From: Corallococcus soli
Lineage (GTDB): Bacteria > Myxococcota > Myxococcia > Myxococcales > Myxococcaceae
Direction: 5' to 3'
Length of the DNA stretch: 64,000 bases
NCBI RefSeq assembly: GCF_014930455.1
Contig: NZ_JAAIYO010000002.1
Coordinates: forward strand, 372,001 to 436,000
A program made the position numbers and the translations under genes. A model generated the notes under the pieces. The model did no database searches. It was not told the DNA's origin and worked only from the letters and a program-made list of their open reading frames with translations. Shown here piece after piece: positions 29,232-32,796 of the stretch; within the stretch, counting starts at the first letter, position 1, and each line of letters opens with the position of its first letter.

Positions 29232-30497
29232 ATGTCGCGGCGCGGTCTGCTCGCTGTCTGTCTCCTGCTCGCCTCCTGCAAACGTCCCTCTCCGGCCGCC
29301 GCCGACGCGGGCACGGATGCGGGTGCGCACGTCTCCGTGAGCGCCGACGCGGGGCCGCTCGCGGCGGGAGGCGTGGACGCGGGCGCGGCGGGCGACTCCG
29401 GCCTTGAGGCCTCCGTGACGCCGCCGGACGACGGCGAGGCGGAGGTGCACCCGCTGGCGGTGTGCGACGCGCGGGGCGATGCCCCCCTGGACGCGGCCCG
29501 CCGCTACTACGACGCGTCCCGCTACGCGGAGGCGCTCTCCTGCGCCGCGCAGGCCGCCGCGCTGGAGCCGGACCTGGCCGCCGCCCACGCCGAGCGCGGC
29601 GCCGCGCTGGCCTCCCTCCACCGCGAGCCGGAGGCGCAGCTCGCCTTCGCCCGCGCGCTGGCAATCGACCCGGGGGACCCGGACGCGCTCCTGGGTGCCG
29701 CGCACCTGTACGCCGTGCAGCTGCCCTCCTCGCGTGAGCGGGACGAACTGGGCGCCCTCTACGCCGAGCGCGGCCTGTCCCAGCCCTCCACCCCCCCGGA
29801 GCTCGTCCCGTCCCTGGCCCTGGTGGCGGCCATGGCCTTCAACGACCTGGGGCAGGCGGACCAGGCGCTGGAGCGCGCGGCCATCGTGCTGGCGCGCGAG
29901 CCGGGCAACGTGGAGGCGAAGTACGAGAAGGCCCTGGCCCTCTTCGAGCTGTGCCGCTTCCGCGAGGCGAAGACGGCCTTCGCGTCGCTCCTGGCGGACA
30001 AGGCGCGCGCCGCGTACGTGCACCAGCACCTGGGGCTGCTCCTGGAGCGCGAGGGGCGCTGGAAGCAGGCGCAGGAGCACTTCGACCGGGCCCGCACGCT
30101 GGATCCCCAGGACTTCCCCCCGCCGCCCCTGCCGACGCCGGAGGAGTTCCGGGCCCAGGTGACGCGCGCGCTGGCGGACCTGCCGGAGGACATGCGCAAG
30201 GACCTGGAGGGCGTGCCGGTGGCCACCGAGGAGATTCCCTCGGAGGACGACCTGCTGGCCAACCAGCCGCCCCTGTCGCCCACCATCCTGGGCCTGTTCC
30301 GGGGGCCCTCCCTGGGCGAGCCCTGCGACGGAACGGAGACGCCGTGCCGCTCCGTGGCCCTCTACCGGCGCAACCTGGCCCGGGCGGTGCGCACTCCCGA
30401 GGAGCTGCGCGAACAGATTCGCGTGACACTGCTGCATGAAATCGGGCATCTGCGAGGGGAGGACGACGAGGAACTGGCCGCACGCGGCCTGGAGTGA
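29232..30497 (+). CDS. TPR lipoprotein with C-terminal minimal zincin domain
   Basis: 421 residues. The signal peptide ends in LLASCKR (lipobox). An Ala/Asp/Gly-rich linker of about 60 residues precedes TPR units (residues 90-310; [36 protein letters not shown] and later copies). The last 90 residues match the zincin-like family PF06262: [31 protein letters not shown], and the metal motif H402-E-I-G-H406-LRGEDD412. The zinc ligands look intact, so it may be a cell-envelope peptidase with a TPR substrate or partner arm. Its stop overlaps an in-frame GTG of rlmI. Confidence 0.82.
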
Positions 30498-30505
30498 GCC
30501 CCCAC

Positions 30506-31684
30506 ATGCCTTCCCTTCCCACTGCCCGTGTCAGCCTGAAGGGCGCCAAGACGCTGCGTCGAGGCTCCCCCTGGCTGTACCGCACGGAGCTGATGGAGCC
30601 CCCCGTCACCGACACGCCGGGCGCGGTGGTCGCGGTGGTGGACCCCCAGGGCAACCCCATCGGGCAGGCGCTCTACGCCCGCCGCTCCCCGCTGGCCATC
30701 CGCCTGCTCACGCGCAAGAGCCCCGCGGAGGAGAAGGTGGACGACGCCTTCTTCATCCGCCGCGTGGAGGCCGCCCTGGCCCGCCGGGGCGTGCTCCCCG
30801 GCCGTGACGGCCTGCGGCTCGTGCATGGTGAAGCGGACCTGCTGCCCGGCTTCTTCGTGGACCGCTACGGCCCGGGCCTCACGATTCAAACGCTCTCCGA
30901 GGGCATGGACGCGCGCAAGGAGATGCTCGCCCGCGCGCTGGTGAAGCTGACGGGCGCCACCCACGTGGTGTGCCGCGACGACGCCTCCGGCCGCGACTTC
31001 GAGAGCCTGCCGCGCGAGGTGCGCCTGCTGCACGGCGAGGGCGACGCGCGCTTCGGCTACCACGAGGGCGACAACCGCTTCGAGGTCGACCTGACGGGCG
31101 ACATGAAGACGGGCGCGTTCCTGGACCAGGTGGACAACCACCTGCGCGCGGGCGAGCTGGGCCGGGGGGACGCGCTGGACTGCTTCAGCTACCACGGCGG
31201 GTTCGCGCTCGCGCTCGCGAAGCACTGCACGTCGGTGCTCGCGGTGGAGCAGGACGCCAAGGCCGCGGCCCGCGCCCAGGCGAACGCGGAGGCCAACGGA
31301 CGGGCCAACGTGAAGGTGGAGAACGGCAACGCCTTCGACGTGCTGCGCCGCTTCGACCAGGAGGGCCGCCGCTTCGACACCATCGTCCTGGACCCGCCGG
31401 GGCTCGCCAAGCGCCGCGAGGGCCTGGCCACCGCGCTGCGCGCCTACCACGAGCTCAACCTGCGCGCCCTGCGCTGCCTCAAGCCGGACGGCCTCCTGGT
31501 GACGTGCTCGTGCTCGGGGAAGCTGGACCGCGAGGGCTTCGAGTCCATGGTGCTGGACGCCGCCGCGGACGCGAAGCGGCCGGTGCAGATTCTGGAGCGC
31601 CGGGGCGCCGGGCTGGATCACCCGGTGCTCGCGGGCCTCGCGGAGACGGAGTACCTCAAGGCCCTCTACGTGCGCGCCTTGTAG
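30506..31684 (+). CDS. rlmI: Class I SAM-dependent rRNA methyltransferase (RlmI type)
   Basis: 392 residues. RlmI methylates C1962 of 23S rRNA. An N-terminal PUA domain ([15 protein letters not shown]) leads to a connector ([18 protein letters not shown]) and a Rossmann methyltransferase domain with [15 protein letters not shown], the LDPPGLAKR motif IV and the Cys pair VTCSCSG at the catalytic loop. The ATG at 30506 follows GGAG by 11 bases; the GTG at 30494 would overlap the previous stop and is the alternative. Confidence 0.92.
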
Positions 31685-31711: not shown

Positions 31712-32215
31712 CTACGGGATGGCCAGCTCCTTGCGCAGCCTGCCCACGACCTTGAAGTACTCGGTGCGGGAGAAGCCCACGTTGAGGATGTGGAAGTCCT
31801 TCTTGGACAGGCCCACGCAGCCGAAGCAGTAGTTGCAGTCCTGCAGGTTCTTGCTCAGCACCACGTACGCGCTGTTGGAGCAGTTCTCGCTCTGCACGCA
31901 GTACGCGCACGCGTGGCAGTTCTTGCACTCCACGCAGTGCGAACAGCTGGTGCACAGCTCGCAGCGCGTGCAGTGCGTGCACTGGTGGCAGCTGTCGCAG
32001 TCCTTGCAGAACATGCAGTTGGCGCAGCGCTGGCAGCCCTCGCACGCATAGGAGCCGGGGTTGCCCGGATCGACCGCGTAGCTCTTGGACAGCTTCTGGA
32101 ACTGGTCCAGGAACTCACGCTTGCCCAGGGACGAAACGCCCAGGCGCGCCAGCTTCTCCTGCTCCAACAACTCCTGGGCCGTCTGGGGCCGGGACCCCTT
32201 CTCCTTCACCGCCAC
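31712..32215 (-). CDS. Cysteine-array protein with Cys at every third residue
   Basis: 167 residues. Seventeen Cys run from residue 58 to 106 at exact spacing of three (CxxCxxC...). Four more (112, 127, 130, 133) keep the same phase, so all 21 Cys fall in one register modulo three. Before the array is a helical segment of about 55 residues. After it come NLQDCNYCFGCVGLSKKDF, HILNVGFSRTEYFKVVG, which resemble a CFGCxGL...EY block I recall from uncharacterised proteins of other phyla. A beta-helix-like fold or a metal-loaded array is plausible; neither is shown. The GTG at 32215 is 5 bases after AAGGAG. A lipoprotein gene ends 20 bases upstream. Confidence 0.8.
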   Translation of the reverse strand: MAVKEKGSRPQTAQELLEQEKLARLGVSSLGKREFLDQFQKLSKSYAVDPGNPGSYACEGCQRCANCMFCKDCDSCHQCTHCTRCELCTSCSHCVECKNCHACAYCVQSENCSNSAYVVLSKNLQDCNYCFGCVGLSKKDFHILNVGFSRTEYFKVVGRLRKELAIP

Positions 32216-32235
32216 GGACGCTCCTTGAACTGGAA

Positions 32236-32796
32236 TCACTGCAGCCGGGCGAGCCCGGCCAGATCGATGCCGCGCGCCACCCGTCGCACCTCCACGGTGC
32301 TGGGGAAGCCACGGCTGGTGACGGCCACCACGAAGCGCTCACCCACCAGGAGGTTCGCCTCCGCCATGCCCTCGTCCGCGTCATAGCGCACGAAGCCCAC
32401 GGCTTCCTTCCACTGGATGGGCGCCGTCGGGTCGCTCGCCGCCCGGCCCCGCGCCTTCTGCGCCGCCTCGCGGATGGCCTGCCCCAGCTTCAGCCCCAGC
32501 GTGGTGTCCACGATGCGCACCTTCACCTCCCGGCCCTCGCCGCGGGTGTAGGTGCGCTCCGCCTCCGACACGGACACGTCGCCGTACTTGCCGGTGGAGC
32601 CCCCGGTGGCGCCCACCGTGAAGCCCTCCAGCGACTCCGGCAGGAAGGGCGCCAGGTCCTTGAAGTACACGCACGGCGCGGCGGTGGTCACCACGTCGCG
32701 CGGGGTGGGAGAAGTCGTGCGTTCGTCGTCAAGACATCCGCCGCCCACGCACAGCGCGAGCATCGCGGTGGCCAGCCGTAGGAAATAGTCGCGCAC
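32236..32796 (-). CDS. Putative lipoprotein of unknown function
   Basis: 186 residues. A short signal peptide (FLRLATAMLALCVGG) ends at the lipobox-like Cys in GGGCLDD. The mature protein is beta-rich (GFTVGATGGSTG, REVKVRIVDTTLG, GERFVVAVTSRG) and has a second Cys near residue 45. No family is recognised. The GTG at 32796 is the only start that leaves the signal intact with a basic N-terminus. It precedes the cysteine-array gene by 20 bases on the same strand and the two probably form an operon. Confidence 0.7.
   Translation of the reverse strand: MRDYFLRLATAMLALCVGGGCLDDERTTSPTPRDVVTTAAPCVYFKDLAPFLPESLEGFTVGATGGSTGKYGDVSVSEAERTYTRGEGREVKVRIVDTTLGLKLGQAIREAAQKARGRAASDPTAPIQWKEAVGFVRYDADEGMAEANLLVGERFVVAVTSRGFPSTVEVRRVARGIDLAGLARLQ

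What the first reader, a model, noticed from the sequence alone, without database searches (positions are those of the whole stretch)
31712..32215. Protein with 21 cysteines in a single every-third-residue register
Seventeen Cys sit at exact spacing of three from residue 58 to 106, and four later Cys keep the same phase. Cys runs this regular are not metallothionein-like (which cluster as CxC and CC) and are not a single zinc finger. A strand- or helix-per-triplet stack such as a beta-helix, or a metal or persulfide ladder, would explain the register. The tail carries a CFGCVGL...EYF block that I recall from uncharacterised proteins of distant phyla, so the array may be part of a wider undescribed family. 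An exported lipoprotein gene lies 20 bases upstream on the same strand.
Basis: partly seen in the sequence, partly recalled or inferred. Interest (0 to 1): 0.72.

Follow-up and report, generated by a model that had tools for sequence, protein, structure and literature searches.

The report
Cysteine-cored antifreeze-like bacterial beta-solenoid
A small myxobacterial protein with a cysteine at every third position is predicted to coil into a tiny 12-residue-per-turn spring, the shape of a beetle antifreeze protein, with the cysteines packed inside and a conserved ladder of aromatic residues outside; what it does in the cell is not yet known.

Summary
It has 21 Cys, 17 at exact spacing three, all in one phase. 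The family is in 128 of 195 Myxococcota genomes, one by a short weak match only. In 92 distinct homologues no Cys leaves the register (0 of 5336 cells); register positions hold only C, S, L, V, M, A, I, T, G. Outward columns repeat every 12 residues (0 of 2000 permutations); every twelfth is aromatic or His (540 of 552), more conserved than the register columns. AlphaFold2 gives a 12-residue-coil beta-solenoid (pLDDT 91-97 over 71-130); nearest solved fold Tenebrio antifreeze protein 1ezg (Z 10.5).

Best reading: a cytosolic beta-solenoid with inward Cys core and an aromatic/His face that probably binds a partner. Fixed disulfide pairs or metal quads find no support in co-loss; metal content is untested. 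Not a heterocycloanthracin-type precursor. Phages carry similar Cys-x-x arrays, pooled without the 12-period. The fold is known; the family is unnamed in Pfam and NCBIfam. The distant-phyla claim could not be tested.

The parts
31712..32239 (-). Whole reading frame: 175 aa from GTG 32239; more likely start GTG 32215 (167 aa)
   Evidence: start supported by AAGGAG at 32221-32226 and by 14 of 19 relatives
32221..32226 (-). Shine-Dalgarno-like AAGGAG, five bases before GTG 32215
   Evidence: AAGGAG before the gene in 14 of 19 relatives
32132..32179 (-). Predicted N-terminal helix, residues 21-36 (distant relatives appear to start after it)
   Evidence: homologue N-termini, read by eye
32072..32122 (-). 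Predicted capping helix, residues 40-56, with near-invariant F43 and invariant L50
31898..32044 (-). Cys array, residues 66-114: 17 Cys at exact spacing three
   Evidence: register kept in 92 distinct homologues
31829..32011 (-). Period-12 ladder F77 H89 H101 Y113 Y125 Y137 (one codon in twelve), on the predicted strands
31817..31882 (-). Later in-register cysteines C120, C135, C138, C141 with Ser/Leu/Val in register between them
31715..31828 (-). Conserved tail, residues 138-175 (CFGCVGL..KDFHILN...EYF), last coil plus C-terminal segment of low model confidence
32236..32796 (-). Upstream lipoprotein-like gene (lipobox-like GGGC, by eye), 20 bases before GTG 32215; a two-gene unit in part of the phylum
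   Evidence: only sub-cut-off Pfam matches

Best explanation
The gene encodes a small cytosolic beta-solenoid of about seven coils of 12 residues, the coil size and fold of the beetle (Tenebrio) antifreeze protein. Each coil has four inward positions, every third residue, and these are mostly Cys, interchangeable over evolution with Ser and Leu, so the 'every third Cys' is the solenoid core seen in one dimension. Each coil also puts one aromatic or His residue at the same place on its one regular strand, giving a stacked ladder F-H-H-Y-Y-Y; since that ladder is more conserved than the register columns, it is the likely working surface (binding a partner, a ligand, or the protein's own caps). 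A short helix caps the N-terminus and the CFGCVGL tail closes the C-terminus. Shown: register, its strictness, the 12-period, the ladder, the conservation. Predicted: the fold. Inferred: cytosolic location (no hydrophobic N-terminal stretch, by eye), thiols mostly reduced and serving as core, scaffold or binding role.
For: Register strict in 92 distinct homologues: 0 Cys in 5336 off-register cells, 0 charged of 2484 register cells, inward alphabet only C S L V M A I T G. Period 12 in outward columns: lag 12 scores 1.008 and lags 24, 48, 36 come next; 0 of 2000 permutations reach the lag 12/24/36 score (z 5.15); by coil length (500 permutations each) z is 5.35 for 12, 2.19 for 6 and below zero for 9, 15, 18, 21. 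Ladder 540 of 552 aromatic/His against 350 of 4048 elsewhere outward; mean column entropy 0.31 bits against 0.51-0.78 for the four register phases. AF2 pLDDT 91-97 over residues 71-130, strands at 77-79, 89-91, 101-103, 113-115, 125-127, 137-139. Best of 320 realigned PDB chains is 1ezg: Z 10.5, rmsd 2.6, 82 of 82; the next entry of another protein has Z 6.2. The family profile's top PDB sequence is also 1ezg, at a non-significant E of 0.1.
Against: Fold is a prediction, pTM only 0.57, caps uncertain (residues 141-175 pLDDT 51-65). AF2 is known to over-predict beta-solenoids for perfect repeats (PMC11795689, abstract and section 3.2.8 read), though the buried stacked charges it describes are absent here, and a 31-Cys viral array modelled with 8 sequences got no confident solenoid (pLDDT 54.5). 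Foldseek alone ranks 1ezg tenth in PDB at E 0.077 with no PDB match at E 0.001. A pure packing role does not explain why Cys rather than Ala/Val/Leu fills the core. No partner or ligand is known; neighbours differ between lineages.
Confidence: 0.5

Rival explanations
1. Metal or iron-sulfur protein: the same solenoid, with stacked CxxC pairs of neighbouring coils holding tetrathiolate metal (Zn, Cu, Fe) or Fe-S sites, for example {69,72,81,84}.
For: About 20 Cys per protein kept (mean 19.9, range 13-24 of 28 register positions). {69,72,81,84}, a CxxC-x8-CxxC stack, is intact in 86 of 92, and 69 and 81 are always lost together, but that is a single event on the tree.
Against: Co-change of Cys by separation is not above chance for any class tested (lag 12: 10 observed, 9.6 expected); no stacked quad is universal; 37 of 71 branches with a change carry a single Cys gain or loss.
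Confidence: 0.25
2. Redox or disulfide-stapled solenoid, as in the beetle antifreeze protein, with Cys pairs across each coil forming disulfides constitutively or on oxidation.
For: Same fold class; beetle antifreeze proteins pair C2 with C8 of each coil (PMC8038014, passages).
Against: Equivalent pairs are often half-lost: 66/72 in 20 of 92, 102/108 in 35 of 92; the counterpart of C138, position 144, is never Cys; lag-6 co-change 9 observed, 9.6 expected; no export signal seen in the sequence.
Confidence: 0.15
3. Precursor of a modified peptide (TOMM/heterocycloanthracin type) in which the Cys-Xaa-Xaa core is turned into thiazoles.
For: Cys-Xaa-Xaa cores are known in that class (PMC2674419, part 1 of 2 read); the own genome has three YcaO matches.
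Against: No NCBIfam hit in any of 55 members; no indels in the array where that class varies by Cys-Xaa-Xaa units; conserved outward residues and tail; the protein is present and YcaO not found in G016, G021, G114, G116, G152, G153 and G155, all at least 94% complete; register Cys often Leu.
Confidence: 0.03
4. Not a solenoid: the 3-register is an extended or 3-10/polyproline-like ladder and the AF2 model is the known bias for repeats.
For: AF2 bias is documented; the caps and part of the model are uncertain; Foldseek support is weak.
Against: The 12-period and ladder come from sequence alone; repeats are divergent; a more regular viral Cys array was not modelled confidently, with only 8 sequences.
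Confidence: 0.1

Closest known systems
Tenebrio molitor antifreeze protein (PDB 1ezg, 1l1i; Pfam PF02420)
   Same: 12-residue coil with inward residues at every third position; best structural match of the model over 82 of 82 residues; top, non-significant, profile hit.
   Different: Not TCTxSxNCxxAx: aromatic/His ladder instead of Thr ranks, most inward positions Cys, no PF02420 match at this gene, no export signal seen, capping segments added, no TmAFP-type Cys pairing pattern.
phrog_15341, phage Cys-x-x array proteins (Campylobacter phages CP220, CP21, WX1; Vibrio phage 1.238; IMG/VR contigs)
   Same: Long runs of Cys at every third residue (27 in CP220, 54 in CP21); all 11 A1 members match the profile (best E 2.9e-9), the window protein over its array.
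   Different: Other N-terminal caps (W.D.NNN.W type in many), variable array length, no pooled 12-lag signal in 26 arrays (one, in L187, has z 4.2), no confident solenoid by AF2. A match over a Cys array may be composition.
Pentapeptide repeat proteins
   Same: Right-handed quadrilateral solenoid with four repeats per coil (start of the abstract of PMC8145042); small residues inside (recalled).
   Different: Five-residue, not three-residue, sides; no Pfam pentapeptide match; Z 4.0-4.6 only.
Heterocycloanthracin-type bacteriocin precursors
   Same: Cys-Xaa-Xaa repetition.
   Different: Fixed length, conserved surface and tail, no dependence on YcaO, no family match.

Membership tests
Insect Cys-rich antifreeze (TmAFP) fold class | 12-residue coil with inward positions at every third residue | tested here: met
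   Period 12 from sequence; strands 12 apart in the predicted model
Insect Cys-rich antifreeze (TmAFP) fold class | Structural similarity to 1ezg | tested here: met
   Z 10.5, rmsd 2.6, 82 of 82, of a predicted model; Foldseek alone is weak, E 0.077
Insect antifreeze protein family PF02420 | Match to the TCTxSxNCxxAx repeat model | tested here: not met
   Own genome's only PF02420 match (E 0.83, under cut-off) is elsewhere; none among 55 members at E 0.1
Insect antifreeze protein family PF02420 | Thr ranks on the flat face | tested here: not met
   Position taken as equivalent to the first Thr is aromatic/His in 540 of 552 cells; the third-Thr position is mixed
Insect antifreeze protein family PF02420 | C2-C8 disulfides | tested here: inconclusive
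   Half-lost pairs common and no co-loss; oxidation state not measurable
Heterocycloanthracin/TOMM precursor | Maturation cyclodehydratase in the same genome | tested here: not met
   No YcaO found in at least seven well-covered genomes that carry the protein. Only PF02624 was searched, not a ThiF-like partner
Heterocycloanthracin/TOMM precursor | Family model match | tested here: not met
   No NCBIfam hit for any of 55 members at E 0.1
Metallothionein | CxC and CC clusters or family match | tested here: not met
   All 21 Cys in one phase of three; no Pfam match
Zinc ribbon / rubredoxin | Pfam-type domain match | tested here: not met
   No such family (E up to 1; E up to 0.1)
Metal- or Fe-S-binding protein | Bound metal | not testable with these tools
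   Needs purified protein
phrog_15341 phage Cys-x-x proteins | Profile match | tested here: met
   11 of 11 A1 members; for the window protein the match covers the array
phrog_15341 phage Cys-x-x proteins | W.D.NNN.W-type N-terminal cap | tested here: not met
   Window cap is KREFLDQFQKLSKSY; phage caps
Pentapeptide repeat proteins | Pfam pentapeptide match | tested here: not met
CFGCVGL-tail proteins of distant phyla (recalled) | Homologous tail outside Myxococcota | not tested
   No other-phylum genome could be used as a centre; viral scans empty

The most novel reading that the evidence does not exclude
The protein is a natural, genetically encoded thiol-lined tube: up to four Cys per 12-residue coil stacked over about seven coils inside an antifreeze-type solenoid that works in the cytosol as a one-dimensional metal-thiolate or Fe-S store or wire, with the aromatic/His ladder as a docking or electron-transfer face, and phage Cys-x-x arrays are its convergent counterparts.
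Probability: 0.15. Interest if true: 0.92.

Novelty: new variant of a known kind. Interest (0 to 1): 0.6.

Why it matters
The 12-residue TCT repeat that builds this coil was, in the passages I read, a beetle antifreeze feature not identified in bacterial antifreeze proteins (PMC8038014). A conserved bacterial, apparently cytosolic family with the same coil length and predicted fold, with Cys in most core positions, suggests that the fold has another use, offers an explanation for at least some puzzling 'Cys every third residue' proteins, and makes a sharp question testable: is a stack of about 20 buried cysteines a metal or redox device, or simply a core?

Tried and rejected
Pfam, NCBIfam and PDB sequence searches of the single protein gave nothing usable (best PDB E 0.22, a Cys-composition match). 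Among 55 members Pfam gave three families, each in one member at E 0.033-0.074 (RPN7, HIND, IntS14_C), taken as chance. Co-loss of cysteines as evidence for disulfide pairs or metal quads: raw correlations looked strong (69-81 r 1.0, 105-108 0.59, 96-99 0.56) but fell to chance once changes were placed on a tree, so I dropped fixed pairs. Constant Cys number by compensation: rejected, the total is over-dispersed (variance 4.6 against 2.7). A universal functional partner: rejected; the lipoprotein is found in 79 of 159 loci (the 159 hold redundant genomes and four unrelated loci), other lineages looked at (15 loci) have other neighbours, and the shared gene order (48 loci, clusters read by eye) looks like ordinary synteny. 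Phage arrays as the same 12-residue solenoid: not supported (26 arrays pooled, lag 12 identity 0.281 against 0.216-0.286 at other lags, although one L187 array has z 4.2 and one L222 array z 2.0; AF2 pLDDT 54.5). The match in Flavobacterium phage FL-1 is to a frame other than the annotated gene. Loci L026 and L027 are short low-score matches without the tail and were left out. Homologue counts: 155 rows, 92 distinct over 90 positions; the AF2 alignment held 55 rows, that is the window protein and 54 of the 55 other representatives (L060 was left out). Literature searches (5.39 million open papers; one search listed 20 of 268) showed no description of a bacterial Cys-every-third solenoid; subscription papers and preprints are not covered.

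Full report

Observation. The gene is on the minus strand. It has 21 Cys at 66-114 (17, each three apart), 120, 135, 138 and 141, all in one phase. Shuffling residues 61-145 100,000 times gave at most a run of 9. It is the only match in its own genome.

Family. Matches occur in 26 of 39 relatives (one, G033, unrelated on inspection) and in 128 of 195 Myxococcota genomes (one, G165, by a short weak match only). One scan of genome contigs found 158 pattern matches, 143 of them relatives, best 80 kept. In a 55-row alignment there is no gap in columns 58-150, and no Cys at a position that is not a multiple of three. In 92 distinct sequences (from 155 rows) the off-register count is 0 of 5336 cells. 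Register positions 66-144 hold 1818 C, 332 S, 281 L and a few V, M, A, I, T, G, and no charged residue in 2484 cells. Cys75 and Cys138 are present in all 92; 72, 84 and 120 in 91. The four poorest members have 13 to 15 Cys.

Coil length. If every third residue faces inward, the question is how many triplets make a coil. I compared only the outward columns of the 92-sequence profile at all lags up to 48, so the Cys could not drive the result. Lag 12 stands out (1.008), followed by its multiples 24, 48 and 36 (lag 3 scores 0.139). A permutation that keeps the triplet phase gave 0 of 2000 at or above the observed 12/24/36 value (z 5.15); tested by coil length, z is 5.35 for 12, 2.19 for 6 and below zero for 9, 15, 18 and 21. 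The signal is visible by eye: residues 77, 89, 101, 113, 125, 137 are F, H, H, Y, Y, Y, aromatic or His in 540 of 552 cells against 350 of 4048 in other outward cells; their mean entropy is 0.31 bits, lower than the four register phases (0.51 to 0.78).

Fold. AlphaFold2 on the 55-sequence alignment gave mean pLDDT 80 (five models 67.9 to 80.0) and pTM 0.57, with blocks of 91-97 across residues 71-130, and one three-residue strand per 12 residues (77-79, 89-91, 101-103, 113-115, 125-127, 137-139) centred on a register residue and starting on the ladder residue. Realigning 320 top Foldseek chains put Tenebrio antifreeze protein 1ezg first (Z 10.5, rmsd 2.6, all 82 residues; model 64-145), its NMR entry second (7.3), then other beta-helices at 6.2 and less. 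Foldseek's own ranking was weaker (E 0.077, rank 10, no PDB match at E 0.001). The family profile against PDB sequences also puts 1ezg first, at E 0.1, which alone would be nothing. In that protein each coil is TCTxSxNCxxAx and forms a regular right-handed beta-helix; C2-C8 disulfides are described for the class (PMC8038014, passages). Its residues C, S, C, A are also three apart, so the every-third register is the expected signature of this coil. Among predicted viral proteins four match at E 0.001 or better, with low TM-scores (0.16-0.41 by query): the best are a mimivirus protein (E 1.3e-8, 33% identity) and a Campylobacter phage protein named Caib/baif (E 8.3e-6).

Is the model an artefact? 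AF2 over-predicts beta-solenoids for perfect repeats and then buries stacked charges (PMC11795689: abstract, section 3.2.8). Here the repeats are divergent, no charge stands at a register position, and the period was found without a model. As a contrast, a viral array with 31 Cys in a row, modelled with seven relatives, reached only pLDDT 54.5 and no solenoid. The contrast is imperfect, because its alignment was shallower.

What the cysteines do. If Cys formed fixed disulfides or metal quads, partners should be lost together. Raw correlations suggested so, but with changes placed on a tree built from outward residues only, no separation class is enriched (3: 9 against 8.0; 6: 9 against 9.6; 12: 10 against 9.6), and 37 of 71 branches with a change carry a single gain or loss. 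The antifreeze-type partners are often half-lost, and position 144, the counterpart of C138, is never Cys (Leu in 90 of 92). No stacked quad is universal; {69,72,81,84} comes closest, 86 of 92. So the simplest reading is a core in which Cys, Ser and Leu are exchangeable. This does not exclude metal; it only says that no fixed site is required by the whole family. Why selection keeps about 20 Cys remains open.

Context. Twenty bases upstream lies a lipoprotein-like gene, found with it in 79 of 159 loci, down to 27-29% identity in L025 and L086; in L086 its stop overlaps the next start. Fifteen distant loci looked at have other neighbours. There is no common partner to assign a pathway. On the other side the 23S rRNA methyltransferase-like gene (30494-31684, plus strand, below NCBIfam's cut-off) is convergent.

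Rivals and wider arrays. The Cys-Xaa-Xaa bacteriocin precursors (PMC2674419, part 1 of 2 read) are unlikely: no model match, no indels in the array, and no YcaO found in seven well-covered genomes that have the protein. Phages and plasmids hold long Cys-x-x arrays: 27 in a row in CP220, 54 in CP21, an unannotated frame on Campylobacter fetus plasmid pCfviMP1, one annotated 'insect antifreeze protein' through InterPro IPR016133, and in-frame runs of ten or more in 97 of 120 fetched IMG/VR loci, the scan having stopped at 120; I read only the more diverse of those frames, and some of the rest may be simple DNA repeats. All ten phage, viral and plasmid proteins scanned match phrog_15341, as does the window protein over its array, but those I read have different caps, variable length and, pooled, no 12-lag. 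I regard them as resembling, not as members.

Verdict. The fold kind is known; the family, its Cys core and its aromatic ladder are not described in what I could search (searches listed under Tried and rejected). The odds given for the best reading and the rivals overlap, since the metal and disulfide rivals share the fold.

Noticed in passing
L160-L165, L187, L188, L233, L238 (phage and IMG/VR loci): Phages carry proteins with long Cys-x-x arrays of variable length, some contigs with several paralogues (L188, L233), with W.D.NNN.W-type caps and, in some (L207, L236, L266), separate C-terminal modules (phrog_31265, phrog_20532/7964).
   Followed up: partly
L138:2438-2845 (Campylobacter fetus plasmid pCfviMP1): Open frame without a gene in the PLSDB table, 28 Cys all in one phase of three, next to a DNA topoisomerase 3 gene.
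   Followed up: partly
window 32236-32796, minus: Lipoprotein-like gene without a Pfam family above cut-off forms a two-gene unit with the Cys gene in part of Myxococcota.
   Followed up: partly
L140, L141, L149: In the most divergent clade other genes sit beside the Cys gene: in L140 and L141 a TPR-like and a P-loop ATPase-like gene (names by eye, no family search).
   Followed up: no
L047 (record titled Comamonas sp. KCTC 72670): Contig carries a gene 84% identical to the Corallococcus protein, with the lipoprotein homologue upstream: probably a mislabelled or contaminated assembly.
   Followed up: no
BFVD A0A5B8IEK9 (Mimiviridae sp. ChoanoV1): Giant-virus protein with the best viral structural match to the model, 33% identity over 87 columns.
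   Followed up: no
L102, L104, L107, L092, L099, L105 and L140-L149: Divergent homologues with Ser-x-x-Leu replacing Cys-x-x-Cys at the same register places.
   Followed up: yes
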